Below are positions 39,481 to 63,850 of a stretch of DNA of 64,000 bases, piece by piece. Each line of letters begins with the position of its first letter. The first letter of the stretch is position 1. The notes beneath the pieces are model-generated. The model was not told where the DNA came from, did not search any database, and saw only the letters and a program-made list of their open reading frames with translations. Both the position numbers and the translations under genes were made by a program. The stretch is from Rhodobium orientis (GTDB taxonomy: Bacteria > Pseudomonadota > Alphaproteobacteria > Rhizobiales > Rhodobiaceae): the NCBI RefSeq assembly GCF_003258835.1, contig NZ_NPEV01000005.1, positions 62,001 through 126,000 of the forward strand, written 5' to 3'.

Positions 39481-39483
39481 CGG

Positions 39484-40377: not shown

Positions 40378-40381
40378 GGGG

Positions 40382-41095: not shown

Positions 41096-41117
41096 GCCGG
41101 GGACTTTCCGTTGTCGC

Positions 41118-42287: not shown

Positions 42288-42330
42288 GTCGGTTCCCTTC
42301 TTTTGGGCGGAGGTGGTGTCTCTTTTCCGG

Positions 42331-44148: not shown

Positions 44149-44241
44149 GCCACCATCTCGTTGGCCATCATCTCTTGGGCTCGCCGTTTCGCCTGGGAGG
44201 GGGCGTCAGACCGCCGGAATTACCGTCACATTTCAGCAAAA

Positions 44242-44291
44242 GGAAAATTTCAAAGTCAATAGTTTAGTGCGCATTGACAAAAAATTTTCAT
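44242..44291. promoter_or_regulatory. AT-rich inverted half-sites between livMG and rpiR (possible operator)
   Basis: GGAAAATTT (44242-44250) and AAATTTTC (44282-44289) are inverted copies about 30 bases apart, in a strongly AT-rich stretch within GC-rich DNA. RpiR-family regulators bind such palindromes near their own gene. The assignment is inference from position. Confidence 0.4.
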
Positions 44292-44301
44292 TTTCAATAA
44301 T
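44274..44301 (+). promoter_or_regulatory. Strong sigma-70 promoter for rpiR
   Basis: A perfect TTGACA (44274-44279) and AATAAT (44296-44301, 5 of 6 to TATAAT) are separated by 16 bases. They lie about 60 bases before the rpiR ATG and overlap the putative operator half-site AAATTTTC, which would suit repression. Confidence 0.65.
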
Positions 44302-44360
44302 GCAATGCGGCGGTGCGAAACGCTTAAAAACACGATGAAAAACGGCATCGGGGAGGGTAG

Positions 44361-45245: not shown

Positions 45246-46555
45246 AGCAGGAATCCCTGGTTTTTCTGTGCACCAGCGACATCGCCGGCAAGGTGCGCGG
45301 CAAGGCGTTTCCCGAAAGCGATTTCGAAAAGCGCCTGAAGCGCGGCATCGGCTGGACGCCGACCAATGTGCAGATCACCTGCTTCGATGCGATCGCCGAC
45401 AGCCCCTATGGCGCGCTCGGCGACCTCGTCATGATCCCGGATCCCGACACCATGGTGGTCGCCGACTATATGGACGAGCGCCCTCCGGAGCGGTTCGTCC
45501 TCGGCGATATCCGCGAGACGACCGGCGATGCCTGGGAGTGCTGCACCCGCTCGATCCTGAAGGGGGCGCTGGAGCGGCTGGAGCGGGTCGCCGGCGTCTC
45601 GCTGGTCTCGGCCTTCGAGCACGAGTTCCACTTCAAGGGCGGCAACTGCCCGCTCGGCTCCGCCTACAGCGCCTCCGGCTTTCGCGCCGAACGGGACTTT
45701 GCCGAGGCGTTGACGGCGGCGATGCGCACGGCGCATCTGGGGCCGGACACCATCATGAAGGAATATGGCGTCGACCAGTATGAGGTGACCATGAAGCCGG
45801 CGGCCGGCATCTCCGGGGCCGACCATGCCGTGATCCTGCGCGAACTGGTGCGGATCACCGCCGACCGCGTCGGCCGGCAGGCGAGCTTCACGCCGCTGCG
45901 CGATCCGGCCGGCGTCGGCAACGGCGTGCACATCCATATGAGCATGCGCCACGCGGACGGCACACCCGCCACCTACGATCCCGACGGCCCGCACGGGCTG
46001 TCCAAGGTCGCCGGCCAGTTCGTCGCCGGCGTGCTCGCCTATCTCGACCGCATCGTCGCCATCACCGCGCCGAGCGTCATCTCCTACACGCGGCTGACGC
46101 CGCACCGCTGGAGCGCGGCCTTCAACAATCTCGGCTATCGCGACCGCGAGGCCTCGGTGCGCATCTGCCCGGTCTCCGGCATGAGCGATATCGCGGTTGC
46201 CGAGCAGTTCAATTTCGAGTTCCGGGCGGGCGACGCGGCGGCAAGCCCCTATCTGGCGCTGGCCGCCATCGTCCATGCCGGCGTCCAGGGCATCGAGGAG
46301 GGGCTGACGCCCCCGGCGGCCACCGAAGAGGACCTCTCTCTGCTGTCGACGGAAGAGCTCAACAAGCGTGGATTCATACGCTTGCCGCAATCTCTTGAAG
46401 AAGCACTTGAGCGTTTTTCCGGCGATGAGACAGTGACCGGCTGGTTCCCGGGTCGGTTCGCCGAGGTCTACGCCAAGCACAAGAAGGGCGAAATCGACTA
46501 CCTCAAGGGCCGCAAGGAGGGCGACGTCTGCGCCGCCTATGAGGAAGTCTACTGA
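45242..46555 (+). CDS. Glutamine-synthetase-family ligase (probable gamma-glutamyl-amide synthetase)
   Basis: This 437-residue protein has the GS fold with the conserved positions FEHEFHF, VDQYEVTMKPA, GNGVHIHMSM, RLTPHRWSAAF and EFRAGDAAASPYLALAAI. It lacks the adenylylation loop of true GlnA and has DREASVRIC where GlnA has NRSASCRIP. Such GS-like enzymes (PuuA, IpuC, GlnA3 types) link glutamate to amines. The N-terminus DIAGKVRGKAFP has the RGK motif of that group. GTG 45242 overlaps the rpiR stop. The acceptor substrate is unknown. The aminotransferase gene follows after one base. Confidence 0.88.
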   Translation: MKQESLVFLCTSDIAGKVRGKAFPESDFEKRLKRGIGWTPTNVQITCFDAIADSPYGALGDLVMIPDPDTMVVADYMDERPPERFVLGDIRETTGDAWECCTRSILKGALERLERVAGVSLVSAFEHEFHFKGGNCPLGSAYSASGFRAERDFAEALTAAMRTAHLGPDTIMKEYGVDQYEVTMKPAAGISGADHAVILRELVRITADRVGRQASFTPLRDPAGVGNGVHIHMSMRHADGTPATYDPDGPHGLSKVAGQFVAGVLAYLDRIVAITAPSVISYTRLTPHRWSAAFNNLGYRDREASVRICPVSGMSDIAVAEQFNFEFRAGDAAASPYLALAAIVHAGVQGIEEGLTPPAATEEDLSLLSTEELNKRGFIRLPQSLEEALERFSGDETVTGWFPGRFAEVYAKHKKGEIDYLKGRKEGDVCAAYEEVY

Positions 46556-46556
46556 T

Positions 46557-47876
46557 ATGTCTTTTCCGCTCTACGAAAAAGACCAGAAAACGCTCTCCAA
46601 GCTGCAGAACCTGCGTTTCTTTCCGCTTGCCGTGACCGGCGGCAAGGGGTCTTACGTGACGGCCGAGGACGGCCGCAAGCTGCTCGACCTTTCCGCCTCC
46701 TGGGGCGCGGCGAGCCTGGGGCACGGCCATCCGGCCTATGTGGCAGCCATCACCGCGGCGGCGTCCAACCCGGCCGGCGCCAGCATCCTGTCGGCGGCGA
46801 GCGCGCCGGCGATCCGGCTCGGCGAGCGCCTGCTTGCCCTGACGGCGGGTGCGGGCGAGCGCCGGGTCTGGCTCGGCCATTCCGGGTCCGACGCCAACGA
46901 GACCGTGGCGCGCGCCGTCGTCGCCGCCACCGGCCGCAGGCGACTGATGTCGTTCACGGGGGCCTATCACGGCGGCACGGCCGGCTCCATGGCGGTCTCC
47001 GGCCATTCGGCGCAGGAAGGGTCCGACAAGGCGGATGGCCTGACGCTGGTGCCGTTTCCCGATCCCTACCGGCCATTCGCCGACGATCCGAGCGGTGCGG
47101 CGCTCCTCGACCAGATCGAGGAGTTGCTAGCCGGCCCCTGTCCCGGTGAGGAGACGGCGGCCTTCTTCATCGAGCCGATCCAGTCGGACGGCGGGCTGAT
47201 CGTGCCGCCGCCGGGCTTCTTCAAGCGGCTCGCGGAGATCTGTGCGCGCTACGGCATCCTGACCGTCAGCGACGAGGTCAAGGTCGGCATGGGCCGGACC
47301 GGGCGGCTGCACTGCTACATGCATGAAGACTTCACGCCCGACATCGTCGTCTGCGGCAAGGGTCTCGGCGGCGGCGTGCCGATTTCCGCGGTCATCGGGC
47401 CCGCAAGAATCCTCGACTTCGCCGTCTGCTTTTCCATGCAGACCCTGCACGGCAACGCCATTTGCTGCGGCGCGGCCCATGCGGTGCTCGACACCATCGA
47501 GAACGAGAAGCTGATCGACAACGCCGCCACCATTGGCGCGCGTCTCTTGTCCTCGCTGGAAGCCTTGAAAGAAAAACACGCCGAGATCGGCGAGGTGCGG
47601 GGACGGGGGCTTGCTATCGGCGTCGAACTCGTCACCGACCGGGCGACCAAGGAACCGGCGAAAGAGCTTGCCGCCAAGGTCGTCTACCGCGCCTTCGAGC
47701 TCGGCCTCGTCGTCTACTATGTGGGCATGAACTCCAACGTCCTGGAGCTGACGCCGCCGCTGACGCTGTCGGCGGCGGAGGCCGACGAGGCGGTCGCAAT
47801 CATTTCGCAAGCCATTTCGGATGCCGCGGCCGGACGGGTAGACGACGCCAAGCTGAAAGGCTTCGAAGGCTGGTAA
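46557..47876 (+). CDS. Class III PLP-dependent aminotransferase
   Basis: This 439-residue omega-amino-acid:pyruvate/GABA-type aminotransferase has GSDANETVARAV, GAYHGGTAGSMA, the Asp in TVSDEVKVGMGRTG and the PLP lysine in VVCGKGLGGGVPIS. ATG 46557 directly follows the GS-like stop (one base between). The frame extends six codons further upstream, but that would overlap. It most likely transaminates the amine or omega-amino acid handled by the GS-like ligase. The substrate is not determinable from sequence. The convergent AraC gene ends nine bases further on. Confidence 0.92.
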   Translation: MSFPLYEKDQKTLSKLQNLRFFPLAVTGGKGSYVTAEDGRKLLDLSASWGAASLGHGHPAYVAAITAAASNPAGASILSAASAPAIRLGERLLALTAGAGERRVWLGHSGSDANETVARAVVAATGRRRLMSFTGAYHGGTAGSMAVSGHSAQEGSDKADGLTLVPFPDPYRPFADDPSGAALLDQIEELLAGPCPGEETAAFFIEPIQSDGGLIVPPPGFFKRLAEICARYGILTVSDEVKVGMGRTGRLHCYMHEDFTPDIVVCGKGLGGGVPISAVIGPARILDFAVCFSMQTLHGNAICCGAAHAVLDTIENEKLIDNAATIGARLLSSLEALKEKHAEIGEVRGRGLAIGVELVTDRATKEPAKELAAKVVYRAFELGLVVYYVGMNSNVLELTPPLTLSAAEADEAVAIISQAISDAAAGRVDDAKLKGFEGW

Positions 47877-47885
47877 GCCGGTCCT

Positions 47886-48800
47886 TCAGTGCGGGAAGGG
47901 CTCGGCCATCTTTTCCTCGCGGAACCGGCCGGGGGCGAGCCCGGTGCGCCGCTTGAACAGCCTCGAAAAGTAAGCCGGGTCCTGGAAGCCGAGTTCGTAG
48001 GCGATCATGGAGGCTGTTGCCGAGGTGTAGATCAGGTGCCTCTGGGCCTCCAGCACCAGCCGGTCCTGGATCAGATCGCTCGGTCCTTTGCCGGCGAAGG
48101 ACCGGCACATCCGGTTGAGACGGGCCTGGCTGACGCCGAGGGAAGAGGCGTAGTCGGCGACCGGCCAGTGGTGCTTGTAGTTGTCCTCAAGCAGGTGGCG
48201 GAAGCGGGTGAAGAGCTCGCGCCGCTCCTCCACCGGCTGGCGCAGCGGCTGCTGGCGATCGTGCTCGCGCCGGATCGCCATCAGCACGATGCGGACCATC
48301 CATTCGAACATGGAGCCGCGGCCGAGCTGCGGCCACTGGAACTCGCGCAGCATCTCGTCGAGGGTCGCCGAGATCAGCCTTGCGCCGTCCTCGTTGTCGG
48401 CGAAGGACAGGATCGTCGGCTCGCCGAACAGCGGCTCGAAGAGCTTGCGGCTGCGTCGGTAGCGGGCATCGATCAGGAGGAGCTCCGACATCGTCAGCAC
48501 CCAGCCGACCGTTTCGGGCTCGAAGGAAAAGCCGTGGACGACGCCTGCGGGGACGCAGACGACGGCGGGCGCGTCGGCCGTCTCCATGCGGTCGTCGATC
48601 CAGACGCCCGCCGATCCGGTAGTCAGAAAGACGATCTGGAACATCCGCCGGTGGGTGTGCGGCGTGATCTGCCACTCATAGAGCCGCGAGCGGGTACGGA
48701 TGTCCTCGATATGGATGAACTGGGGATCGTCGTCCGGCTGCTCGTCGCCGAAAAGCACATAATGGGAAATGGTCGCTAGCGCCGGATCGTGTCGGGCCAT
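47886..48800 (-). CDS. AraC-family regulator, PobR-like
   Basis: This 304-residue regulator has an N-terminal cupin sensor domain (ITPHTHRRMFQIVFLTTG, then VCVPAGVVHGFSFEPE) and a C-terminal AraC double HTH (about 200-295: VADYASSLGVSQARLNRMCR and IAYELGFQDPAYFSRLFKRR). The layout and the AraC-type HTH resemble the PobR/PobC activators of 4-hydroxybenzoate hydroxylase genes. It is divergent from the P450 gene over 137 bases that contain two direct repeats. It therefore probably activates P450 and ferredoxin in response to an aromatic acid (inference). Confidence 0.87.
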   Translation of the reverse strand: MARHDPALATISHYVLFGDEQPDDDPQFIHIEDIRTRSRLYEWQITPHTHRRMFQIVFLTTGSAGVWIDDRMETADAPAVVCVPAGVVHGFSFEPETVGWVLTMSELLLIDARYRRSRKLFEPLFGEPTILSFADNEDGARLISATLDEMLREFQWPQLGRGSMFEWMVRIVLMAIRREHDRQQPLRQPVEERRELFTRFRHLLEDNYKHHWPVADYASSLGVSQARLNRMCRSFAGKGPSDLIQDRLVLEAQRHLIYTSATASMIAYELGFQDPAYFSRLFKRRTGLAPGRFREEKMAEPFPH

Positions 48801-48820
48801 GGCGGATCGCCTTTTGCTAA

Positions 48821-48903
48821 AACGTTCGAAAAGTACAAGACATATTCCATTTCGTCCATTCCACGGCGGCCCGTTCGTCCATAACGTTCAAAGTGGAACA
48901 AGA
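48821..48903. promoter_or_regulatory. Direct repeats, candidate AraC/PobR binding sites
   Basis: AACGTTCGAAAAGTACAAGA (48821-48840) and AACGTTCAAAGTGGAACAAG (48883-48902) are similar direct repeats about 62 bases apart in the AraC-P450 divergent region. AraC-family activators bind repeated half-sites of this kind. Confidence 0.5.
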
Positions 48904-48937
48904 AGAAATTGCACAACGATCCCGGGAGGAAACACGC

Positions 48938-50101
48938 GTGTTCCGCTTCGATCCCTATTCTCCGGCAAACGATGCCGATCCGTTCGATGCCTACAAGACG
49001 CTGCGCGACGAATATCCCGCCTTCTGGTGCGAGGAGGCCGGCATGTGGGTCTATTCGCGCTATGACGACATCATCGCGGCGTTGAACGACTGGCAGACCT
49101 ATTCCTCGGCCAAGGGCAATCTCGTCGACGAATTGCCGAACCGCGCTGGCGCGACGCTCGGCACCACCGATCCGCCGCGCCACGACCGGCTGCGCGCGCT
49201 GATCCAGAAGGCGATGACCAAGCGTGCCCTCGACGTCATCGTCGAGCCGACGCGCGGCATGTGCAAGAAGCACCTCGATGCGCTGGACGGCAGGAAGAGC
49301 TTCGACTTCGTTGCCGAATATTCCTCCAAGGTGACGGTCGATCTCCTGTTCGACCTCTTCGCGATGCCGGAATCCGGCCGCCAGACCGTGCGCGACAACG
49401 CCGTACTGATGGTGCAGACCGATCCGGTGACCCGCCAGAAGGGGCCGGAGCACATCGGTGCCTATGAGTGGATGGCGAAATACGCCAACGAGCTGATTGC
49501 CGAGCGCAAGAAGGCGCCGGGCGAGGATCTCCTGTCCAACTTCATCACCGCGGAAATCGACGGCGAGAGCCTTGCCGACCGGGAAATCCAGATGACGGTG
49601 ACGACGCTGATCATGGCCGGCGTGGAGTCGCTCTCCGGCTTCCTCAGCATGATGGCCTACAATCTGGCGGAACAGCACGATGCGCGCCGGGCGCTGGTCG
49701 CCGACCCGTCGCTGATCCCCGATGCCATCGAGGAGTCGCTGCGCTTCAACACCTCGGCCCAGCGCTTCCGCCGCTGCCTGACGCGAGACGTGGAAAACCA
49801 CGGCCAGATCATGAAAGAGGGCGACTTCATCATGCTGGTCTACGGTTCTGGAAACCGGGACGAGCGGCGCTTTGCGAACCCGGACGTCTTCGATATCGCC
49901 CGCAAGCCGCGTGGCCATCTCGGCTTCGGCGGCGGGGTGCATGCCTGCCTCGGTGGGGCCTTGGCGCGGGTGGCGACGAAGATCGCGTTCGAGGAGTTCC
50001 TCGGCCGCTATCCGGAGTTCGAGCGCGTCGGCGAGACCACCAAGTGGGTGCCGTCCTCCAACTTCCGCAGCCCGATGAAGCTGGATCTTGCCGCCGCCTG
50101 A
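48938..50101 (+). CDS. Cytochrome P450
   Basis: This 387-residue soluble bacterial P450 (class I, ferredoxin-dependent) has the I-helix motif LIMAGVESLSGFL, where the usual Thr of AG-x-(D/E)-T is Ser. The K-helix EESLR (ExxR) and the heme-cysteine loop FGGGVHACLGGALARV are present. GTG 48938 is chosen because GGGAGGA (48924-48930) lies 7 bases upstream; an earlier GTG at 48893 has no such site. The 2Fe-2S ferredoxin gene follows, so the pair likely forms a monooxygenase, but no reductase gene is present. The PobR-like regulator and the protocatechuate genes nearby suggest hydroxylation or O-demethylation of an aromatic acid (inference). Confidence 0.93.
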   Translation: MFRFDPYSPANDADPFDAYKTLRDEYPAFWCEEAGMWVYSRYDDIIAALNDWQTYSSAKGNLVDELPNRAGATLGTTDPPRHDRLRALIQKAMTKRALDVIVEPTRGMCKKHLDALDGRKSFDFVAEYSSKVTVDLLFDLFAMPESGRQTVRDNAVLMVQTDPVTRQKGPEHIGAYEWMAKYANELIAERKKAPGEDLLSNFITAEIDGESLADREIQMTVTTLIMAGVESLSGFLSMMAYNLAEQHDARRALVADPSLIPDAIEESLRFNTSAQRFRRCLTRDVENHGQIMKEGDFIMLVYGSGNRDERRFANPDVFDIARKPRGHLGFGGGVHACLGGALARVATKIAFEEFLGRYPEFERVGETTKWVPSSNFRSPMKLDLAAA

Positions 50102-50178
50102 GGCAGCGACGGCGGATCGATGCGCCGGGCGGCGGTCGCCGTCGCCCGGAGCGATCCGCTTATTTCGGAGACCGATCG

Positions 50179-50502
50179 ATGCCGAAGGTAACCTATATCG
50201 AACATGACGGCCGCCGGTTCGAGGTCGACCTGCCGGAGGGCTGGAGCCTGATGCAGGGGGCGCTGCTGAACGGCGTCACCGGCATCGAGGGCGAGTGCGG
50301 CGGCTCCTGCGGCTGCGCCACCTGCCATCTCTATGTCGACGAGGCGTTCGTCGACCGGCTGCCGGAGATTGCCGAGGCGGAAGACGAGATGCTCGATTGC
50401 ACCGTGGCCCAGCGCGAGGCGAATTCCCGCCTCGGCTGCCAGATCAAGATGACGCCGGACCTCGACGGCCTCGTCGTGCGCCTGCCGGAAGAGCAGAGCT
50501 GA
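50179..50502 (+). CDS. 2Fe-2S ferredoxin (putidaredoxin/adrenodoxin type)
   Basis: This 107-residue electron carrier has the cluster cysteines in GECGGSCGCATC and the fourth in MLDCT. This is the ISC/vertebrate-type spacing used by P450-coupled ferredoxins. CGGAG lies ahead of ATG 50179. It is 77 bases after the P450 gene in the same direction and should reduce it. Its last 32 bases are echoed at 51465-51496, about 1 kb downstream. Confidence 0.94.
   Translation: MPKVTYIEHDGRRFEVDLPEGWSLMQGALLNGVTGIEGECGGSCGCATCHLYVDEAFVDRLPEIAEAEDEMLDCTVAQREANSRLGCQIKMTPDLDGLVVRLPEEQS
50471..50502 (+). repeat. Ferredoxin 3' end, copy 1 of a 32-base imperfect direct repeat
   Basis: These are the last codons of the ferredoxin (VVRLPEEQS and TGA). 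They match 51465-51496 at 28 of 32 positions, and the reading frame is also preserved in the second copy. Confidence 0.65.
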
Positions 50503-50867
50503 TTTGCGACGGATCCGGGTGAGATCCCGTGCGAGGGGTGTCAACTGGAACCGGTATTATTACAATTCCACTTGTGAAAAGCTTCCAGTGCCCATAGGCT
50601 TTTGTGGTCTGGTTGTGGCGGTCGAAATTTCCGGCCGATCCGCTCCGCGATGACTCGAAGATTTCAACGATGACCATCCACATTCCGCTGTCCTCTTGTG
50701 CCTGCCACGGCAGATCATCCGAACGCGGTCTCATCAAGACGCGGTCCCAATAAAACTCATCCCGTTTCTTCGGCCCGGTCGGAGAAATGCGGACATGTTT
50801 CATCTGCGCCGTCTCCAATCGGTCCGCGATTGTTTCGCAAGGAGATGCGCTGAAGGGGGGAATATCG
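50503..50867. other. Intergenic region with possible antisense gene remnant
   Basis: This 365-base gap is AT-richer than its surroundings, especially 50550-50620. On the minus strand an open frame from ATG at about 50803 to about 50560 reads like a real protein (for example KRDEFYWDRVLMRPRSDDLP and AQEDSGMWMVIVEIFESS). It then runs antisense into the ferredoxin 3' end without a natural stop. It may be the remnant of a gene cut off at the 50503 junction. No plus-strand gene is supported before 50868. Confidence 0.35.
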
Positions 50868-51386
50868 ATGTTGAAAAAATGCGTCGTGCTACTCGGCTGT
50901 CTCGCAACCACGCTTGCTGCCACGACGGCGAGCGCCCAGGTCGGCCACCTCTACTACAAGTCCTTCGGCCCCTTTAAGGTCAACAAGGACTATTTGGGAA
51001 ATGGCTTCACCGGGTGCAGCGCAACGATCCGCTCAAAGTCCGGGCAATTGCGCTTCCAATTGCAGAAAGGGGGCAGCAAGAGCTTCCATTTCAAGAGCCC
51101 GAGGGGAACGGGGAACGCGTCTTTTACCGGCGTGGCACCCTTTCCGGTCACCGTGATCCTCGATGGCAAGCAGCGCCTGGTCTTTCGCAAGCACTCCGTG
51201 CCGATGCTGTTCAATGACGAGAAGTTAACGATGGTCGTCTTCGACAAGGAGACCTCGGCCTTTCTGAACACCAAGAGGGCGATCCGGATCAAGCAGGGCA
51301 AGCGGACGATGACCTGGAAGTTTCCCAATGGCGCCATGAAGAATGCGCTGCTGGGCGTCTGGGATTGCGTTCAGAAAAACAACTAG
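50868..51386 (+). CDS. Secreted protein of unknown function
   Basis: This 172-residue protein has a clean Sec signal peptide (KKCVVLLGCLATTLAATTAS, cleaved after ASA, mature start QVGHLYYKSF). The mature part is basic, beta-rich in appearance, and contains two cysteines (FTGCSATI and VWDCVQKNN) that could form a disulfide. I do not recognise a family. AGGGGGG at 50854-50860 supports ATG 50868. Base composition is lower in GC than the neighbouring genes, and the segment is bracketed by the ferredoxin-tail repeats, which suggests insertion or local transfer. Confidence 0.75.
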   Translation: MLKKCVVLLGCLATTLAATTASAQVGHLYYKSFGPFKVNKDYLGNGFTGCSATIRSKSGQLRFQLQKGGSKSFHFKSPRGTGNASFTGVAPFPVTVILDGKQRLVFRKHSVPMLFNDEKLTMVVFDKETSAFLNTKRAIRIKQGKRTMTWKFPNGAMKNALLGVWDCVQKNN

Positions 51387-51464
51387 CGGGAACACGTCTT
51401 GGGCAACGTATCGCGCTAGCGGCGTGATGCCGCCCTTGTCCGACGGCTCTTCAGGCGACAGTCT

Positions 51465-51496
51465 TCGTCGTCTGCCTTCCGGAAGAGCTGAGCTGA
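51465..51496 (+). repeat. Ferredoxin-tail echo, copy 2 of a 32-base direct repeat
   Basis: 28 of 32 bases are identical to 50471-50502. In the matching frame it reads FVVCLPEELS followed by TGA, against LVVRLPEEQS and TGA in the ferredoxin. There is no start codon or other ferredoxin sequence upstream, so it is a remnant, not a gene. Confidence 0.6.
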
Positions 51497-51517
51497 GAGG
51501 GCGGCCGCCGGCCGGGA

Positions 51518-52975
51518 TCAGGCGTCTTCCGGCGCCGATGTCGCGCGGCGATCCACACCCCGGCTGCGGAGCATGAGCACCAAGGCGATAGCCATCAGAC
51601 CTGCCGCGACCAGGAACGTCAGCCGCAAGCCCGCGGCGACAGCCTCGCCCGAGGCCGAGGCGACCGGTGCTGCCGCCCCGAAGGCGAAGACGGCGCCGAG
51701 AACCGAGGCGCCGGTGATGAAGCCCAGATTGCGCGACAGGCTGAGCATTCCCGAGACGACGCCGCGGCGATCCTCCGCACCGCCGGTCATGACGGCTGTG
51801 TTGTTGGCGGCCAGGAAGAGCTGGTAGCCCGGCGTCAGGACGGCAAGCGCCGTGACGTAGCCGGCAACGCCGGCGATCCCCGGCAACAGGGCCAGCAACA
51901 GGGCGCCGGTTGCCATCTCGACAAGCCCGAAGACGACCACCCGCGGCGCGCCGAAGCGGTCGACGATGCGTCCGGCGGGAATGCCGGTCAGCGCCGAGAC
52001 CGTCGGGCCGACCGACATGACGAGGCCGACCGTGGCCTCGCCCAGCCCGAGGCTGCGCGACAGGTAGAACGGGCCGACCAGGAACGTTGCCATCATGACG
52101 GCGGACACCAGCAGATTGGCCGCAAGGCCGGACCGGAGCGCCGGGTCGGCAAAGGTCTTCGGATCGATCAGCGGCGAGGCCGCGCGCGCTTCGATGCGCA
52201 GGAACAGGATGGCACCGGCGATGGAGGCGGCGACAAGCACGGTCGTGCCGCCGCCGATGTCGATCCCCGTCGTGGTCGACAGGGCATAGGCGACGAGGGT
52301 CAGCGTCAGAACGAGGGTGCCGGTTGCGTCAAAGGCCTTCCGGTCCGGCCGGCCCGCCTGCCGGTCGCGCGGCAGATGTCTGAGGCAAAGGACGGCCGCG
52401 AGACATCCCATCGGCACCATGACGAGGAAGATGGACCGCCATCCGGCACCGGCGATGAGGGCGCCGCCGAGGGAGGGGCCGAGCGCCGTGCCGACCGCCG
52501 ACATCGTTCCGAGCAGGCCCATGGCACTACCGGTTCGCTGCCGCGGGACCGTTGCGCGGACCATTGCGACGGTCAGCGCCAGAAGGACGGCGCCGCCGAG
52601 GCCTTGGAGCCCGCGGGCGACGACGAGGACAGCGAGGGTGGGGGCGGCCGCGCAAGCGGCCGAGGCCGCCGTGAAGACCAGGATGCCGGCAAGGAGCACC
52701 CGCCGCGGGCCGACGATGTCGGCGAGCCGTCCGGCGCCGACGCTGAAGACGGTGACCGCCAGGAGATAGGCCAGGACCACCCATTGCACGGTGCCGAAGG
52801 AGGCGGCGAAGGCCTGGGCGATGGTCGGCAGGGCGACATTGGCGCTGCTGATGCTGAGCGAGGACATCAGCATGGCAAGCGCCAGGCTGGCGAGCGCCCA
52901 TCGGGTCGGGACGGACGTGTCGCCGTCCGTCGCCATGGTCTGTTCGGCGGGTATCGGCTTCAAGGAGGTCTCCAT
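51518..52975 (-). CDS. MFS drug/solute exporter, DHA2 (EmrB/QacA) type
   Basis: This 485-residue major facilitator has about 14 hydrophobic segments. The family motifs are GRLADIVGPRRVLLAG (motif A between helices 2 and 3) and LLGTMSAVGTALGPSLGGAL (motif C of exporters). It likely exports a toxic or aromatic compound by proton antiport. ATG 52975 is used; a second ATG at 52936 is possible. It is divergent from a LysR regulator across 125 bases, the usual arrangement for an inducible exporter. Confidence 0.9.
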   Translation of the reverse strand: METSLKPIPAEQTMATDGDTSVPTRWALASLALAMLMSSLSISSANVALPTIAQAFAASFGTVQWVVLAYLLAVTVFSVGAGRLADIVGPRRVLLAGILVFTAASAACAAAPTLAVLVVARGLQGLGGAVLLALTVAMVRATVPRQRTGSAMGLLGTMSAVGTALGPSLGGALIAGAGWRSIFLVMVPMGCLAAVLCLRHLPRDRQAGRPDRKAFDATGTLVLTLTLVAYALSTTTGIDIGGGTTVLVAASIAGAILFLRIEARAASPLIDPKTFADPALRSGLAANLLVSAVMMATFLVGPFYLSRSLGLGEATVGLVMSVGPTVSALTGIPAGRIVDRFGAPRVVVFGLVEMATGALLLALLPGIAGVAGYVTALAVLTPGYQLFLAANNTAVMTGGAEDRRGVVSGMLSLSRNLGFITGASVLGAVFAFGAAAPVASASGEAVAAGLRLTFLVAAGLMAIALVLMLRSRGVDRRATSAPEDA

Positions 52976-53100
52976 CTTGGAAAGGATCAGGACTCCTGGA
53001 AGCTATGGACACATCCTCAATTGCGGAAGGCGCATCGTTTGCATTCAATCAGTGCATGGAGCGCCATGTCATTTGCGGCCTGCCGTGGTAGTCTGGTCCC

Positions 53101-54030
53101 ATGGACCATCCCGATCTCAACCTCCTCGTCACCCTTGACGCGCTCCTTGCCGAGGGCAGCGTTGCCGGCGCCGCGCGGCGGCTGCGGCTCAGCCCGTCGG
53201 CGATGAGCCGCTCGCTCGCCCGGCTTCGCGCCGCGACCGGCGATCCGCTTCTGGTGCGGGCGGGGCGCGGCCTGGTGCCGACGCCGCGGGCGCTGGAGCT
53301 GAAGGAACGGGTCGGGCCGCTGGTCGACAGCGCCCTGGCCGCGCTGCGGCCGGCAGAAAGGCTCGACCCGGCGCGGCTGGAGCGCACCTTCAGCATGCGC
53401 AGCCGGGAGGGGTTCGCCGAGACCTTCGGGCCGGCACTGATCGCGCGCATCGGCCTTGAGGCGCCGGGCGTGCGCCTGTGGCTGCAGCCGAAGCCGGACA
53501 AGGACAGTTCGCTCTTGCGCGATGGCATCATCGATCTGGAAATCGGCGTCATCGGCTCCGACATGGGGCCGGAGCTGCGCGCAAGGGCGTTGTTCCGAGA
53601 CCGTTTCATCGGGGTCGTCAGAAGCGGCCATCCGCTCTCTTCAGGCGTCGTCACGGCGGAGCGTTTCGCCGCCGCCGGCCACATCCTGGTCGCCCGGCGC
53701 CGGCGCAAGACAGACGACATCGACACGGCGCTGGAGCCCCTCGGCCTTGCCCGCAAGGCCGCGATCGTCGTCGGCGGCTTTGCCACCGCCCTCAGCCTTG
53801 CCCGTGCCACCGACCTTGTCGCCTGTGTTCCGGAACGCCACACCGAGACGCTCCGCGCCGGGATGGCGAGTTTCCCGCTTCCCGTAGCGTCAAGGGAGTT
53901 CACGATCTCCATGCTCTGGCATCCGCGGCTCGATGCCGATCCGGCCCATCGCTGGTTTCGCGACGTGGTGCGGGCGGTCTGCGCCGGCGATCCTGCACCG
54001 GTGACGGGCGAGATCGGTCAGGTCTCGTGA
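53101..54030 (+). CDS. LysR-family transcriptional regulator
   Basis: This 309-residue regulator has the N-terminal HTH SVAGAARRLRLSPSAMSRSL with GDPLLVRAGRGLVPTPRA, and a C-terminal substrate-binding domain. It is divergent from the MFS exporter, which it probably controls. Its last 13 bases overlap, in antisense, the end of the HbpS/GlcG-like gene. The effector is unknown. Confidence 0.9.
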   Translation: MDHPDLNLLVTLDALLAEGSVAGAARRLRLSPSAMSRSLARLRAATGDPLLVRAGRGLVPTPRALELKERVGPLVDSALAALRPAERLDPARLERTFSMRSREGFAETFGPALIARIGLEAPGVRLWLQPKPDKDSSLLRDGIIDLEIGVIGSDMGPELRARALFRDRFIGVVRSGHPLSSGVVTAERFAAAGHILVARRRRKTDDIDTALEPLGLARKAAIVVGGFATALSLARATDLVACVPERHTETLRAGMASFPLPVASREFTISMLWHPRLDADPAHRWFRDVVRAVCAGDPAPVTGEIGQVS

Positions 54031-54449
54031 CCGGTGCGCTTCAGCGTTTCCTTGACGACCTCGATGTCGTCGCCTTCAAGGCCTCCGGCGATGCCGACGG
54101 CGCCGATGCACTCGTCGCCGTAGAACACCGGGGCGCCGCCGCCGATCATTGCCACCTTCGGGTGCTGGGAAAGGCCGGCGGCCAGATGCGGGTTGTCGTT
54201 GAGGCGGTCTTTCCAGGCCGAGGTCGGCTTCTTGAAGCTGACGGCGGTGTAGGCCTTCTTCTCTGAAAACTCCCGGGCCGGGAACGGCGCGCCGACCATG
54301 CGCTGGTAGACCAGCACGTGGCCGGCCGCATCGACCACCGTGACGTGGATCTTGAGGCCCTTTTCAAGGGCGACGTCGACGGCGGTGTCGGCAAACATCT
54401 GGGCAGCCTCAAGCGTCATGCTCTCGATCATGTGGCTGCGAGTGACCAT
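54018..54449 (-). CDS. GlcG/HbpS-family protein
   Basis: This 143-residue heme-degrading/heme-binding fold protein (DUF336/GlcG/HbpS) has MTLEAAQMFADTAVDVALEK, VVDAAGHVLVYQRMVGAPFP and the glycine-rich IGGGAPVFYGDECIGAVGIA. Members accompany many oxidative catabolic operons, but their biochemical role there is not settled. It lies 90 bases after ligB1 on the same strand and is the last gene of the leftward lig/gal operon. Its end overlaps a convergent LysR gene by 13 bases. Confidence 0.87.
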   Translation of the reverse strand: MVTRSHMIESMTLEAAQMFADTAVDVALEKGLKIHVTVVDAAGHVLVYQRMVGAPFPAREFSEKKAYTAVSFKKPTSAWKDRLNDNPHLAAGLSQHPKVAMIGGGAPVFYGDECIGAVGIAGGLEGDDIEVVKETLKRTGHET

Positions 54450-55387: not shown

Positions 55388-55735
55388 TTACTCCCCTGCG
55401 CGCCGCAGTTTTTCCTTGAAATCCTCGACCGACATGCCGGTCTGCTGGGCTCCGACGTCCTGGACGTTGAGGCCGTACATGCCGGCGAATTTGGCGAGGT
55501 AGTAGATGTTACCGCCGGCGGCGATCAGGTCGAGCACGACCTTGTCGCGGACGGCCTGCTTCTGCTCATCGTTGAGGCCGTACTTGTCCATGTAGGCCTC
55601 CTCGTCGGCGAGGAATTCCTCACGGTTCTGCTTGTTGTTGAACGAGTAGCACATCTTGTTGAGGGCATAGCCCTTCATGGCCTGGGTTCCGTCGAACATG
55701 ACGGTGCCCGGGATCGGCTCCTTGTTGTGGGTCAT
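55388..55735 (-). CDS. ligA: LigA-like extradiol dioxygenase small subunit (copy 1)
   Basis: This 115-residue protein has IPGTVMFDGTQAMKGYALNK, NREEFLADEEAYMDKYGL and GGNIYYLAKFAGMYG, the conserved blocks of the protocatechuate 4,5-dioxygenase alpha chain. That chain forms the lid over the LigB active site. ATG 55735 lies behind GGAGAGGAA. It is followed directly by ligB copy 1, with which it must assemble. The frame's upstream extension is not LigA-like. Confidence 0.9.
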   Translation of the reverse strand: MTHNKEPIPGTVMFDGTQAMKGYALNKMCYSFNNKQNREEFLADEEAYMDKYGLNDEQKQAVRDKVVLDLIAAGGNIYYLAKFAGMYGLNVQDVGAQQTGMSVEDFKEKLRRAGE

Positions 55736-55761: not shown

Positions 55762-56628
55762 TCAGCTCCAGTAAAGGCGCATCGGGTTGTCGACGAGCAG
55801 CGCCTGTTGTTGGTCTTTTTCCGGCGCAATGTTCGGGATGACGTCGACCAGCTTGCCGTCGTCCGGCATGTGGCTCTTCATGTTGGGGTGCGGCCAGTCG
55901 GTGCCCCAAAGCACCCGGTCGGTGAAGCGTCCGACCAGGAGCCGCGAGAACGGCACGACGTCGCTGTAGTCGGGCGGGCCCTCGACGCTGAGACGCTCCG
56001 GGCAGCTCACCTTGGTCCAGATTTTTTGCTCATCGGCCATCAGGTCGACGAAGCGCTGGAAATCGGGATGGTCGACGCCCTTTGCGACGTCCGGCCGGCC
56101 CATGTGATCCACGACGATGGTCGTCGGGATTTCCTTGAGGAACGGGATCAACTCTTCCAGATTCTCGGCCTCGAAATAGACCACCACGTGCCAGCCGAGC
56201 TCGGCGATCCGCGAGGCGATCCCAAGGAACACTTCCTTCGGGGTGGCATCGACCAGGCGCTTGACGAAATTGAAGCGCACGCCGCGCACGCCCGCGCGGT
56301 GCATAGCCTGCAATTCAGCGTCTGTGACGTCCGGTCCGACCGAGGCAACGCCGCGGGCAAGTTCGCCGGCGCTCTTCAGGGCATCGACGAGGGCGCGGTT
56401 GTCCTTGCCGTGGCAGGTCGCCTGGACGATGACGTTGCGCGAAAAGCCGAGATGGTCGCGGAGTGCAAAAAGCTGGTCCTTGGATGCATCGCAGGGCGTG
56501 TATTTGCGCTCCGGCGCGAACGGGAATTTGTCCGCCGGCCCGAAGACGTGGCAGTGGGCATCGACCGCGCCGACGGGCGGCGTGAAGGCCGGTTTCGACG
56601 GGTTCGGGTGAAAGGGCATGTAGCTCAT
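55762..56628 (-). CDS. ligI: 2-pyrone-4,6-dicarboxylate hydrolase LigI
   Basis: This 288-residue amidohydrolase-superfamily enzyme opens the lactone 2-pyrone-4,6-dicarboxylate to 4-oxalomesaconate. Motifs include GAVDAHCHVFGP, GVRGVRFNFVKRLVD, VDHMGRPDV and RVLWGTDWPHPN, as in known LigI proteins. ATG 56628 is preferred to the TTG one codon before because GGAG sits at the right distance. It lies 26 bases upstream of ligA copy 1 in the operon. Confidence 0.92.
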   Translation of the reverse strand: MSYMPFHPNPSKPAFTPPVGAVDAHCHVFGPADKFPFAPERKYTPCDASKDQLFALRDHLGFSRNVIVQATCHGKDNRALVDALKSAGELARGVASVGPDVTDAELQAMHRAGVRGVRFNFVKRLVDATPKEVFLGIASRIAELGWHVVVYFEAENLEELIPFLKEIPTTIVVDHMGRPDVAKGVDHPDFQRFVDLMADEQKIWTKVSCPERLSVEGPPDYSDVVPFSRLLVGRFTDRVLWGTDWPHPNMKSHMPDDGKLVDVIPNIAPEKDQQQALLVDNPMRLYWS

Positions 56629-56646
56629 CAAGAAACTCCGTCGCGC

Positions 56647-57705
56647 TCAGGGCGCAAAAACTTCGCCGTCGAACAATTTTCGCGCCGTGCGCAGGATCGC
56701 GGCATCGAGGATGGCACCGTCGCCGTCGACCTCGACGACGACGGACATCGCGCCGATGGGGTGCTCTATCTCGAGCGTCTTGCGTGTGCCCTCCGGGATC
56801 TCGGCGATCTCTGCCGCCGGGCTTCCCGGCAGCATGCAGGCGGTGGCGACGCTGACCGCGCCGAGGACGCCGATGGAGGCGTGGCAACGATGGGGGATGA
56901 AGGTCCGGGTGGAGAGAACCCCGCCCTTGGTCGCCTTGGAGACCATGGTCATCTTCGGCACCGACTTTTCCGTCACGTCGCCGAGATTCATCAGGTGCCC
57001 GGCGGCAAGGCGGATTTTCTCCAGCCGCGCCTTCAGGGCCTCGTCGTCGTCGAGCTTGGCCCGGCTTTCCGTGCCGGTGATGCCGAGGTCGGCGGCGCGC
57101 ATGACGACGACGGGCATGCCGTTGTCGATCATGGTGACCTCGACGCCCTCGACCACATCGACCGCATTGCCGGTCGGCAGCAGCGCGCCGCAGGTGGAGC
57201 CGGCGGTGTCCCGGAAGGAGACCGGAACGGGGGCTGCCGTTCCCGGCACGCCGTCGATGCAGGCATCGCCCTTGTAGGTGACAGTGCCGCCGGGGGTCTG
57301 GACCCTGGCGACGGCGATCTGGCCGGTGTTTTCCATATAGATGGTGACCGGCGTCTCGCCGTCCTCGGCGTCAACGAGGCCGCGCTCGATGGCGAAGGGG
57401 GCGATGCCGGCAAGGATGTTGCCGCAGTTCTGGGTGTCGGTGACGATGGCCTGGTCGACAAAAACCTGCAGGAACAGATAGTCGACATCAACGCCGTCGC
57501 GCGTCGATTTCCTGACCACGCCGACCTTGGAGGTGAGGGGATCGGCGCCGCCCATGCCGTCGATCTGGCGCGGGTCGGGCGAGCCCATGACGCCGAGCAG
57601 GAACGCATCGCGGGCGGCAAGGTCGGCGGGTAGTTCGTCGGCCAGGAAGTAGCCACCCTTGGACGTGCCGCCGCGCATCCACATGCAGCGAATGCCATCA
57701 GACAT
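56647..57705 (-). CDS. ligU: 4-oxalomesaconate tautomerase (GalD/LigU, PrpF family)
   Basis: This 352-residue PrpF-fold isomerase moves the double bond of 4-oxalomesaconate so that the hydratase can act. The start [19 protein letters not shown] carries the conserved MRGGTSKG. The paired cysteines are in [15 protein letters not shown] and in the C-terminal [13 protein letters not shown] block. Its start overlaps the ligK stop by eight bases, showing tight coupling. Confidence 0.92.
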
Positions 57706-58372
57706 ATTTGAGGCCCTTTTCGGCGAGCCGCTCGCGCATGCCGTAGATGTCGAGGCCGAGTTCGCCGGCCGCCAGCCGCTTTCTCTTGTCCTCTTCCTTG
57801 GCCTCACGGTCCTGGGCCTTCTTCAGGACCTCTTCGGCCTCGGCAAGGGCAACGACGCAGACGCCGTCGTCGTCGGCGACGACGATGTCGCCGGGATTGA
57901 CCAGCGCACCGGCGCACACGACCGGAATGTTAACCGAACCGACGGTCTCCTTGACCGTGCCCTGTGCATGGACCGCCTTCGACCAGACCGGAAAGCCCAT
58001 CTCGGTGAGGTCGCGCACATCGCGCACGCCGGCATCGATGACGAGGCCGAGGCCGCCGCGGGCGCGCATGGAGGTGGCGAGCAGATCGCCGAAATAGCCG
58101 TCCTCGCAGGGCGAGGTCGGGGCAAGGACGAGGATGTCGCCGTCCTTGACCTGCTCGATGGCCACATGGACCATCCAGTTGTCGCCCGGGGGCGCGGAGA
58201 TGGTGACGGCCGAGGCGCCGAGCCGGGCACCGGCATAGATCGGCGTCATGTAGGGGGCGAGGAGGCCCTTGCGGCCCTGCGCCTCATGGACGGTGGCGAC
58301 ACCGCATTTGCCGAGCGCCTCAACGATCTCGCGGGGCGCACGGGGCACGTTCTGAACGACGACGCCACCCAT
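57698..58372 (-). CDS. ligK: 4-carboxy-4-hydroxy-2-oxoadipate aldolase (LigK/GalC, RraA-like)
   Basis: This 224-residue class II pyruvate aldolase of the RraA/HMG-CHA aldolase family splits 4-carboxy-4-hydroxy-2-oxoadipate into pyruvate and oxaloacetate, the last step of the pathway. Visible motifs are [33 protein letters not shown] and the metal/substrate-binding [15 protein letters not shown] 58372 overlaps the galB stop by one base (TGATG). The longer open frame upstream runs antisense-free through galB and is a shadow. Confidence 0.92.
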
Positions 58373-59106
58373 CACAGCTCGTCCACGGTGCGCGGATAGA
58401 TCGACTGGAAGCCTTCGGCGTATTTCGCCGCGCGCCCGCCCGCCTGGCCGCCGGAATTGCGACGGAAGTGGTTGCCGCGATTTTCGGCGACGTTCGTGTA
58501 GTAGGTCCACAGGTGCTCCTGGCCCTGCATGCATTCGATGGCCGCGCGCTTCTTGTCCCAGACCGGGGTGATGTCGAGGAAGACGTCGGGCTTCCAGCCC
58601 ATCTGCTCGGTCTGGTGCGGCTCGAACAGGTAGAGCTGCGGCGCGCCCAGCACCTTCTCGCCCGGATTGTGGCCCCAGGCCTGGGCGATCATCCGGCACT
58701 CCATGGCGACGTTGGTCGCGTACATGTGGTCGGTGTTGTAGGGATCGTAGAGCGAGTGGCTCATCATGAAGCTCGGTTGGACCTTGCGGATCAGGTCGAC
58801 GAGCTTGAACTTCTGGTCGCGATCAAGGTCCAGCGGATAGTCGCCGGCATCGAGGAACTGGATGTCGTGGGCGCCGAGGGCGGCGGCGGCGGCTTCGGCC
58901 TCGCCCTTGCGGGCGACCTTCACCTGATCCAGCGTCATGCCGTCCTGCTTCCACAGCTTTGCCGACTCGCCGCGCTCGCCGAAGGAGAGGCACGCAATGG
59001 TGACCTCGTAGCCTTTTTCCTGGTGGAGCGCGATTGCGCCGCCGCAGCGCCAGACGAAGTCGGCGGCGTGGGCACTGATTACGAGGGCGGTTTTTTTGTC
59101 GGTCAT
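58372..59106 (-). CDS. galB: 4-oxalomesaconate hydratase GalB (PIG-L family)
   Basis: This 244-residue PIG-L/LmbE-fold zinc protein is related to Pseudomonas putida GalB, which hydrates 4-oxalomesaconate to 4-carboxy-4-hydroxy-2-oxoadipate. The metal-binding start [20 protein letters not shown] and [14 protein letters not shown] are present. [15 protein letters not shown] and [13 protein letters not shown] are also GalB-typical. It replaces the unrelated LigJ hydratase of Sphingobium. It is the first gene of the leftward operon, 199 bases from the divergent tandem-HTH LysR gene. Confidence 0.92.

Positions 59107-61649: not shown

Positions 61650-61653
<4 letters not shown>
60727..61653 (+). 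CDS. NAD(P)-binding dehydrogenase with DUF1932 domain
   Basis: This 308-residue protein has an N-terminal Rossmann domain of the 6-phosphogluconate/beta-hydroxyacid dehydrogenase type (AAFIGFGEAGEAFASGWL). A C-terminal DUF1932 helical domain includes SSIKMIRSVMMKGLEALFLE, which has the Lys typical of beta-hydroxyacid dehydrogenases. The reaction is unknown. Its stop overlaps the ligA2 start by four bases (ATGA), so it is translationally coupled to the dioxygenase, and a role in the same pathway is likely. It starts at GTG 60727. Confidence 0.85.
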
Positions 61654-62874
<1,221 letters not shown>

Positions 62875-62902: not shown

Positions 62903-63850
62903 ATGAAAATCTGTGTTGCAGGCGCCGCCGGAGCCTTCGGGCGAAAGCATCTGGATGCGCTGGCCAAGATCGACGAGGTCGAGGTCGTCTCCGTCGTCGG
63001 CGGCGGACCGGACGACATCGACGCCTTCGCGGCCGAGCGCGGCATTCCGCACGCCACCAAGGATCTCGCCGATAGCCTTGCGCGCGACGACGTCGAGGCC
63101 GTGATCCTCGCCACCCCGACCCAGATCCACGCCGCCCAGGCGATCCAGTGCATGAAGGCCGGCAAGCATGTGCTGGTCGAGATCCCGATGGCCGACAACC
63201 TGGCGGACTCCCGGGAAGTCGTGAAGGTCCAGCAGGAAACGGGCCTGACCGCCATGGCCGGCCATGTGCGGCGCTTCAATCCGAGCCACCAGTGGATCCA
63301 CAACAAGATCGAGGCCGGCGAGATCAAGGTGCTGCAAATGGACGTGCAGACCTTCTTCTTCCGCCGCTCCAACCTCAATGCGCTCGGCGAGCCGCGCACC
63401 TGGACCGACCACCTGCTGTGGCACCACGCCTGCCACACGGTCGACCTCTTCCAGTACCAGACCGGCGAGACGGCTTCCGAGGCCATGGGCGTGCAGGGGC
63501 CGGTGCATCCGGAGCTCGGCATCACCATGGACATGGGCATCGTCATGAAGGTGCCGTCGGGGGCGCTCTGCACCCTGTCGCTGTCCTTCAACAATGACGG
63601 CCCGCTCGGCACCTATTTCCGCTATATCTGCAACAACGGCACCTACATCGCCCGCTACGACGACCTCTTCAACGGCAAGGAAGAACAGATCGACCTTTCC
63701 GGCGTCGCCGTCTCCAACAACGGCATCGAGCTGATCGACCGGGAATTCGTCTCCGCCATCGCCGAGGGGTGTGAGCCGAATGGCTCGGTTGCCCAGTGCC
63801 TGCCGGCGATGGAAACTCTGGACAAGATCGAGAAGTCGTTCCAGTCCTAG
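62903..63850 (+). CDS. ligC: 4-carboxy-2-hydroxymuconate-6-semialdehyde dehydrogenase LigC
   Basis: This 315-residue Gfo/Idh/MocA-family enzyme oxidises the hemiacetal of the LigAB product to 2-pyrone-4,6-dicarboxylate with NADP. The nucleotide-binding start is CVAGAAGAFGRKHLDALAKI. Very conserved LigC blocks include MDVQTFFFRRSNLNALGEP, TWTDHLLWHHACHTVDLFQY and LSLSFNNDGPLGTYFRYICN. It follows ligB2 after 28 bases. The next enzyme, LigI, is in the divergent operon, so both operons are needed together. Confidence 0.94.
   Translation: MKICVAGAAGAFGRKHLDALAKIDEVEVVSVVGGGPDDIDAFAAERGIPHATKDLADSLARDDVEAVILATPTQIHAAQAIQCMKAGKHVLVEIPMADNLADSREVVKVQQETGLTAMAGHVRRFNPSHQWIHNKIEAGEIKVLQMDVQTFFFRRSNLNALGEPRTWTDHLLWHHACHTVDLFQYQTGETASEAMGVQGPVHPELGITMDMGIVMKVPSGALCTLSLSFNNDGPLGTYFRYICNNGTYIARYDDLFNGKEEQIDLSGVAVSNNGIELIDREFVSAIAEGCEPNGSVAQCLPAMETLDKIEKSFQS

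What the first reader, a model, noticed from the sequence alone, without database searches (positions are those of the whole stretch)
47886..50502. PobR-like regulator divergent from a P450-ferredoxin pair without reductase
P450 and ferredoxin genes are adjacent and preceded by a regulator of the type that controls 4-hydroxybenzoate hydroxylase. Together with downstream protocatechuate genes this suggests an aromatic acid hydroxylase or O-demethylase that feeds ring cleavage. The ferredoxin reductase must be encoded elsewhere. The I-helix has Ser in place of the usual Thr.
Basis: inference. Interest (0 to 1): 0.6.

Follow-up and report, generated by a model that had tools for sequence, protein, structure and literature searches.

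The report
P450 linked to 4-hydroxybenzoate use
A bacterial P450 enzyme with its own ferredoxin sits beside genes that break down a plant-derived ring acid, behind a DNA control site also found in front of some genes for the usual 4-hydroxybenzoate enzyme; this genome appears to lack that usual enzyme, so the P450 may do its job.

Summary
An AraC-type regulator (47886-48800, -) is divergent from a P450 (better start GTG 48938) and a putidaredoxin-like ferredoxin (50179-50502). The P450 is a CYP203A, 63.8% identical to P450-T2/8FBC. Its I-helix Ser is not odd: Glu-Ser is invariant in 86/86 aligned CYP203A sequences. A reductase candidate is encoded elsewhere in the genome (C106:33005-34219).

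New here: an operator-like site, AAAAGTAC-N17-GTCCATT, lies before the P450 (48829-48860) and before CYP203A in other proteobacteria. A matrix trained only on CYP203A sites also scores 5 of 15 pobA upstream regions above all 2649 control windows. No PobA (over cut-off) or PcaH was found in this genome, but it has two LigAB sets. PobA-less Azospirillum brasilense (one LigAB type) and Pinisolibacter (PcaH, no LigB match) also keep the P450.

Best reading: CYP203A makes protocatechuate from 4-hydroxybenzoate or a close relative (0.5). Against it: PobA coexists in 52/80 CYP203A genomes, and in Novosphingobium the P450 tracks a second LigAB type, reported gallate-preferring, rather than PobA absence. 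O-demethylation and gallate formation remain open. No activity was tested.

The parts
47886..48800 (-). AraC-type regulator, PobR/HpaA-like (304 aa), divergent from the P450
   Evidence: Pfam HTH_18 7e-20, AraC_binding 7.2e-6; best NCBIfam HpaA 193.6 bits, below its cut-off 274.65; 33-41% to AraC proteins near pobA
48829..48860 (+). Predicted operator AAAAGTAC-N17-GTCCATT, 77 bases before GTG 48938
   Evidence: Seen in the 19 intergenic regions chosen for alignment, some with 1-2 mismatches; with up to 3 of 15 mismatches in 39 of 88 CYP203A loci; only strong matrix site in the window, 47.6, next non-overlapping 10.7
48938..50101 (+). Cytochrome P450 of the CYP203A kind (387 aa; longest ORF starts 48893)
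   Evidence: 245 of 384 aligned residues (63.8%) identical to 8FBC/P450-T2; Glu245-Ser246 (402-aa numbering) in 86 of 86; start as in relatives
50179..50502 (+). Putidaredoxin-type [2Fe-2S] ferredoxin (107 aa)
   Evidence: Fer2 7e-9; putidaredoxin 1gpx E 1.9e-36; Cys at 40, 44, 46, 49, 74, 87, of which 40/46/49/87 fit the putidaredoxin ligands (recalled); directly after the P450 in 39 of 80 relatives
54018..54449 (-). HbpS-like protein beside LigB1
   Evidence: Pfam HbpS-like 7.8e-30; also beside LigB1 in L026, L106, L107
54540..55382 (-). LigB1: class III extradiol dioxygenase beta subunit, the type that travels with CYP203A
   Evidence: NF009901 483.3 bits over cut-off 290; 1b4u_B E 2.6e-81, DesB 3wku E 9.3e-76; apart from the LigB/LigB2 group in the tree
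55388..55735 (-). LigA1: alpha subunit
   Evidence: NF009918 191.6 bits over cut-off 161
55765..56631 (-). Amidohydrolase, probable 2-pyrone-4,6-dicarboxylate hydrolase (name inferred)
   Evidence: Same protein cluster as L088:18122-19033, which is Amidohydro_2; best NCBIfam SlmHylase 224.1 bits, below its cut-off 500
56650..57807 (-). 4-oxalomesaconate tautomerase (open frame without stop; true start probably near 57680)
   Evidence: NF033377 542.5 bits over cut-off 440, matched from residue 44
57701..58399 (-). 4-carboxy-4-hydroxy-2-oxoadipate aldolase LigK
   Evidence: TIGR02798 389.8 bits over cut-off 304.5
58372..59106 (-). PIG-L/LmbE-like protein, possibly the 4-oxalomesaconate hydratase (GalB-like, recalled)
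   Evidence: Pfam PIG-L 3.4e-22; no NCBIfam match at 1e-30
61650..62042 (+). LigA2: protocatechuate 4,5-dioxygenase alpha subunit
   Evidence: TIGR02792 169.6 bits over cut-off 108.6
62035..62874 (+). LigB2: protocatechuate 4,5-dioxygenase beta subunit of the SYK-6 LigB type
   Evidence: 1b4u_B E 6.6e-124 (run from 62020); NF009903 509.1 bits over cut-off 317; in one group with SYK-6 LigB
62903..63850 (+). Gfo/Idh/MocA dehydrogenase, probable LigC (name recalled)
   Evidence: GFO_IDH_MocA 8.7e-21, OxRdtase_C 4e-89 (run from 62906); no NCBIfam match at 1e-30

Best explanation
A three-part P450 monooxygenase under a PobR-type switch. An aromatic acid, most likely 4-hydroxybenzoate, activates the AraC regulator at the site 48829-48860, which switches on the P450 and its ferredoxin. 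Electrons pass from NAD(P)H through an unlinked reductase (candidate C106:33005-34219) and the ferredoxin to the P450, which hydroxylates 4-hydroxybenzoate (or a close relative) at C3 to protocatechuate; LigAB enzymes then open the ring. In this genome, where no PobA was found, it would stand in for that flavoenzyme. Shown by computation: the genes, the family, the conserved site and its presence before some pobA genes, no PobA match over cut-off, a reductase candidate. Inferred: effector, regulator binding, substrate, product, redox pairing.
For: Own genome (98.54% complete): no PobA over cut-off (best 43.7 bits), no PcaH at E<=1e-40, two LigAB sets. The matrix trained on 31 CYP203A sites scores 5 of 15 pobA upstream regions above all 2649 control windows and a sixth at p 0.0011; 5 of the 6 pobA loci with an AraC homologue have the site, against 1 of 9 without (p 0.011). 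pobA and the P450 sit together in L009, L039, L045, L088, L095. CYP203A1 is reported to bind 4-hydroxybenzoic acid (PMC7780096, passages). Three A. brasilense genomes (G074, G075, G082 = L050, L051, L066) have no PobA (E<=1e-50) and no PcaH, one LigB match at E<=1e-30, of LigB1 type, and a LigC homologue near the P450; strains Sp7 and Cd carry regulator, P450, ferredoxin, reductase and LigBA in a row on plasmid p3. Pinisolibacter (L096 = G095; G028 looks the same) has the P450 unit and PcaH, but no PobA and no LigB match. Ferredoxin beside the P450: 21 of 28 PobA-less against 18 of 52 PobA-bearing relatives, p 0.0009; outside sphingomonads 21/22 against 18/28, p 0.014. 16 of 17 P450-T2 mutation sites are identical here.
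Against: PobA (E<=1e-50) is in 52 of 80 CYP203A genomes (34/50; 18/30), and in the sister genome G002. Among LigB2-bearing Novosphingobium, PobA is equally common with and without the P450 (24/28, 52/61). The P450 instead tracks LigB1 (28/28 against 34/61, p 4e-6); N. aromaticivorans LigAB2, apparently of this type, prefers gallate in vitro (PMC8091115, passages). 9 of 15 pobA upstream regions have no convincing site and 49 of 88 CYP203A loci lack the strict site. In the regulator tree the three pobA-only regulators do not fall in the window's group, and deep forks are weak. A shared site does not prove a shared effector; binding is not turnover. G105 and G106 have neither LigB nor PcaH nor PobA matches. 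Many PobA-less genomes are metagenome assemblies; of 39 isolates 7 lack PobA.
Confidence: 0.5

Rival explanations
1. The P450 is an O-demethylase: it converts a methoxybenzoate (vanillate, isovanillate, 4-methoxybenzoate or the like) to protocatechuate or 4-hydroxybenzoate.
For: Known bacterial P450s with benzoates do this (CYP199A4, recalled); CYP199A4 is among the solved relatives, though distant (154.7 bits against 535). It would explain a P450 next to pobA.
Against: CYP203A is far from CYP199A. The conserved site is shared with pobA, a gene for 4-hydroxybenzoate. A demethylase that ends at 4-hydroxybenzoate would be a dead end where PobA is missing. Vanillate demethylases were not searched for in these genomes.
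Confidence: 0.17
2. The P450 hydroxylates protocatechuate to gallate (or frees gallate from 3-O-methylgallate), and LigA1B1 is a gallate dioxygenase.
For: In 149 genomes of the Novosphingobium genus draw all 28 with the P450 have LigB1, against 35 of 121 without. LigA1-LigB1-P450 runs in one direction in L009, L039, L041, L045 and L084. N. aromaticivorans LigAB2 was more active on gallate than on protocatechuate (PMC8091115, passages) and its deletion primer encodes EVSRNYHI, as in LigB1 of L123 and L125.
Against: In three A. brasilense genomes LigB1 is the only LigB type and a LigC homologue lies in the cluster (LigC serves the protocatechuate product, not gallate: recalled). Pinisolibacter has the P450 without any LigB match; in L089/G110 the neighbouring LigB is LigB2 and no LigB1 match was found. 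The same paper reports that LigAB2 also opens protocatechuate and partly replaced LigAB in cells.
Confidence: 0.13
3. The P450 is an accessory enzyme for unusual relatives of 4-hydroxybenzoate (halogenated or bulkier phenolic acids), co-regulated with PobA.
For: PMC7780096 says CYP203A1 binds chlorinated aromatics and P450-T2 binds mimosine and emodin (passages). PobA is present in 52 of 80 CYP203A genomes.
Against: 15 of 17 pocket or loop positions are at least 98% invariant across 86 sequences, which fits one fixed substrate. The P450 occurs without a PobA match in 28 of 80 genomes.
Confidence: 0.15

Closest known systems
CYP203A subfamily (CYP203A1 R. palustris, CYP203A2 N. aromaticivorans, P450-T2/PDB 8FBC)
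   Same: 63.8% identity to P450-T2; same Glu-Ser pair; 16 of 17 listed pocket or loop sites identical
   Different: No native reaction is given in the passages I saw; here regulator, site, ferredoxin and pathway context are added
PobA with an AraC-type PobR (4-hydroxybenzoate 3-hydroxylase; names recalled)
   Same: Homologous AraC regulator, shared upstream site in some loci, same supposed product
   Different: PobA is a flavoprotein; this is a haem P450 with a ferredoxin chain
CYP199A4 system of R. palustris (4-methoxybenzoate O-demethylase; function recalled)
   Same: Bacterial P450 for benzoates with a [2Fe-2S] ferredoxin
   Different: Another P450 family, 154.7 against 535 bits
P450cam/putidaredoxin/putidaredoxin reductase
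   Same: Same class of electron chain; ferredoxin closest to putidaredoxin
   Different: Other P450 family and pathway; reductase unlinked here

Membership tests
CYP203A | At least about 55% identity to a named member (nomenclature rule recalled) | tested here: met
   245 of 384 aligned residues, 63.8%, to P450-T2, which PMC7780096 places in CYP203A
CYP203A | Binding of substituted aromatic acids or phenols | not testable with these tools
   Reported for relatives only
Class I bacterial P450 system | P450 plus [2Fe-2S] ferredoxin plus FAD reductase | tested here: inconclusive
   P450 and ferredoxin adjacent; reductase candidate unlinked; pairing not shown
PobA (TIGR02360) | Flavoprotein over 538.7 bits | tested here: not met
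   The gene is a P450; best PobA match in the genome 43.7 bits
PobR-type AraC regulator | Sequence kinship with AraC regulators beside pobA | tested here: inconclusive
   33-41% identity to AraC proteins near pobA in 6 of 15 pobA loci, but the pobA-only regulators do not fall inside the window's group of the tree; the shared regulators of L088 and L095 sit in the larger group of 43 that holds the window's
PobR-type AraC regulator | Binds an operator shared with pobA | tested here: inconclusive
   Site shared by 5 (or 6) of 15 pobA upstream regions; binding not shown
PobR-type AraC regulator | Responds to 4-hydroxybenzoate | not testable with these tools
   Needs an experiment
HpaA (TIGR02297) | Score over 274.65 bits | tested here: not met
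   193.6 bits
4-hydroxybenzoate 3-hydroxylase (function) | Forms protocatechuate from 4-hydroxybenzoate | not testable with these tools
   Context only
Gallate dioxygenase (for LigB1; NF009904) | Score over 412 bits | tested here: not met
   286.3 bits; the model is 426 positions long, so a separate beta subunit cannot fill it and the activity is not excluded

The most novel reading that the evidence does not exclude
CYP203A with its ferredoxin and reductase is a P450-type 4-hydroxybenzoate 3-hydroxylase, an unrelated second solution to the textbook flavoenzyme reaction. It is switched through the same kind of site as pobA, backs up PobA in many proteobacteria and replaces it in some, among them this genome, Azospirillum brasilense and Pinisolibacter.
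Probability: 0.42. Interest if true: 0.7.

Novelty: new variant of a known kind. Interest (0 to 1): 0.52.

Why it matters
CYP203A enzymes have a solved structure and an engineering use but no native reaction in the passages I saw. Tying them to a pobA-type upstream site and to protocatechuate cleavage gives a direct test. If right, genomes judged unable to use 4-hydroxybenzoate for want of pobA may be misjudged, and lignin-acid pathways gain a second entry enzyme.

Tried and rejected
Simple replacement of PobA everywhere: rejected, PobA coexists in 52 of 80 and is independent of the P450 in the Novosphingobium draw. Gallate formation, for a while my leading idea because of the LigB1 coupling: lowered after A. 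brasilense and Pinisolibacter. Benzoate 4-hydroxylation: set aside as a general role, since its product would be a dead end without PobA (reasoning). A remnant reductase in the gap after the ferredoxin: none (best E 0.83, outside the gap). The amine-type cluster upstream (RpiR, glutamine-synthetase-like, aminotransferase) as partner: found beside the P450 only in sister genome L106 among the 88 loci plus window scanned. Other recurrent neighbours (10 representatives) gave no single clue: cytochrome bd, LysE and MFS transporters, but also a catechol-dioxygenase-like gene (L070/L073) and FAD monooxygenase plus FAA hydrolase (L089/L102), which point to aromatic catabolism in general. One search (8fbc) returned mostly unrelated papers and one relevant one. 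Not opened: the four papers, two, one. No structure was predicted: a model without ligand would not separate the rivals. Limits: the loci are the best 80 of 275 relatives; many are metagenome assemblies, so absences may be gaps; counts are not corrected for kinship; the 88 loci include the window and two that repeat others (L110/L095, L118/L039); the 15 pobA genes come from 13 CYP203A genomes of my choosing; the sphingomonad and isolate lists were drawn up by me from record titles; LigB rows under 230 residues were dropped, and row L095_LigB2 there is a bad frame (branch 10) that I disregard.
Full report
What is there. The regulator, P450 and ferredoxin are real and intact. Relatives of the P450 start at MFRFDPYSP, which puts its start at GTG 48938, behind GGGAGGA. 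It is identical to P450-T2, PDB 8FBC, at 245 of 384 aligned residues, 63.8%; P450-T2 is described as CYP203A (PMC7780096, passages; PMC11334723, passages). Of 17 P450-T2 sites screened for directed evolution, 16 are identical in the window protein and 15 are at least 98% invariant across the 86.

Reductase. No reductase homologue lies beside the pair in the window or in sister genome G001 (L106), but the third genome of the genus, G002 (L107), has P450, ferredoxin and reductase in a row. A protein on contig C106 (33005-34219) is 66% identical to the G002 reductase and 61-63% to the next best operon copies, with Pyr_redox_2 and Reductase_C domains. A second candidate on C163 is at 42-45%. Which one serves the P450 is not shown.

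Context across genomes. The scan found 275 relatives and kept the best 80. A divergent AraC gene is found in 60 of 77 with enough flank, ferredoxin next in 39 of 80, reductase after in 33 of 76, a protocatechuate 4,5-cleavage gene within 10 kb in 31 of 80, LigB1 in 22, LigB2 in 17 and pobA in 6 of 80 (detection by tblastn with the window's proteins). Azospirillum sp. TSH58 and A. brasilense Sp7 and Cd have AraC, P450, ferredoxin, reductase and cleavage genes in one stretch. In Novosphingobium mathurense (L039) and PP1Y (L009) the order is AraC, then PobA, LigA1, LigB1, P450 in one direction; in two Bradyrhizobium (L088, L095) pobA, AraC and P450 are neighbours.

The upstream site. Aligning 19 chosen intergenic regions showed one conserved block, AAAAGTAC-N17-GTCCATT. 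With up to 3 of 15 mismatches it precedes the P450 in 39 of 88 loci (23 exact), with 21 sites elsewhere in 4.4 million bases of both strands, overlapping loci counted twice; five of those 21 lie 50-136 bases before pobA, in L108, L113, L116, L120 and L121. Many of 18 sphingomonad P450 upstream regions show a related AAAAGTGCAA half only. A matrix from 31 non-redundant CYP203A sites, scored on the 200 bases before 15 pobA genes, put those five above all 2649 control windows and L110 at p 0.0011; the other nine were not convincing. Controls were random windows of the same loci, not only intergenic ones. An AraC homologue was found in six of the 15 pobA loci; five of these six have the site, against one of the other nine, p 0.011. 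In the window only the site before the P450 is strong.

Regulator tree. Of 76 regulators, the window's falls with CYP203A-side regulators of alphaproteobacteria; the regulators shared with pobA in L088 and L095 are in the same larger group of 43; the sphingomonad P450-side and pobA-side regulators are neighbouring groups (89/91); two of three pobA-only regulators are long branches near the base, and deep forks are weak. So kinship with pobA regulators is by homology and by the shared site, not by close grouping.

PobA. The own genome has no PobA over cut-off. G001, G015 and G028 have no match, G002 has one. Of the 80 CYP203A genomes 52 have a match at E<=1e-50: 34 of 50 and 18 of 30. Of 39 isolate genomes seven lack it. 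Genomes without it more often keep the ferredoxin beside the P450: 21/28 against 18/52.

LigB1. The window has two LigAB sets. LigB2 is of the SYK-6 protocatechuate 4,5-dioxygenase type; LigB1 is apart from it. A LigB1 match at E<=1e-95 is in 49 of 55 CYP203A genomes by my count; without it are G028, G095, G100 (just short), G105, G106 and G110. In 149 genomes drawn from the genus of G080 (Novosphingobium subterraneum) it is in 28 of 28 with the P450 and 35 of 121 without; given LigB2, 28/28 against 34/61, p 4e-6, while PobA is 24/28 against 52/61, p 1. N. aromaticivorans LigAB2 converted about 31% of gallate but 14% of protocatechuate in 2 h, and partly replaced LigAB on protocatechuate in cells (PMC8091115, passages); its primer-encoded EVSRNYHI matches LigB1 of L123 and L125.

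Weighing. LigB1 coupling alone suggests gallate. Against that, three A. brasilense genomes have one LigB match, of LigB1 type, a LigC homologue near the P450, no PobA and no PcaH match. PMC3899980 (passages) found only meta-cleavage of protocatechuate in A. brasilense, named enzymes from 4-hydroxybenzoate to protocatechuate for other Azospirillum, and reports growth on protocatechuate for all its strains but CBG497; I did not check those strains for these genes. PMC9143718 (passages) cites chemotaxis of Sp7 and Cd to aromatic acids including 4-hydroxybenzoate. Pinisolibacter has PcaH and no LigB match (G028 and G095 give identical PcaH coordinates and are probably one genome). Both cases are simplest if the P450 makes protocatechuate. 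The site shared with pobA and the reported 4-hydroxybenzoate binding of CYP203A1 then point to 4-hydroxybenzoate.

Literature. Searches for CYP203A (six papers, two of them opened), P450 with protocatechuate 5-hydroxylase (none), P450 with gallate dioxygenase and 4-hydroxybenzoate (four, not opened), P450 with pobA and ferredoxin reductase (two, not opened) and PobR with AraC, pobA and P450 (one review, not opened) showed no stated link between CYP203A and PobR or pobA in what I saw; only an open-access library was searched. Passages of PMC12710314 and PMC10807440 mention LigAB2 and no P450.

Noticed in passing
window 59306-60535: PcaQ-like LysR regulator with two Pfam HTH_1 stretches; L051's relative likewise, and there the PcaQ model matches only from residue 117. 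A tandem-HTH LysR seems unusual.
   Followed up: no
window 38662-47876: N-formylglutamate amidohydrolase, Liv-type ABC transporter, RpiR regulator, glutamine-synthetase-like and class III aminotransferase genes: an amine or amino-acid catabolic cluster next to the P450 unit.
   Followed up: partly
window 58372-59106: The PIG-L/LmbE-like protein in the cleavage cluster may be the 4-oxalomesaconate hydratase (EC 4.2.1.83) that PMC3899980 could not identify in A. brasilense; Sp7 has a PIG-L gene there too.
   Followed up: no
window 50787-54030: An ORF without Pfam match, an MFS transporter and a LysR gene sit where sister genome G002 has the ferredoxin reductase, as if the reductase gene had been displaced.
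   Followed up: partly
window 60727-61653: DUF1932/NAD-binding protein repeatedly beside the PcaQ-like gene; role unknown.
   Followed up: no
L128 11199-11230: In Marinobacterium lacunae the site (2 mismatches) lies before LigA1B1 beside an AraC gene, although its P450 (L069) lacks the strict site.
   Followed up: no
L025: Contig labelled Stygiobacter (Ignavibacteriota) whose AraC and LigB proteins group with Magnetospirillum L023: probably misbinned.
   Followed up: no
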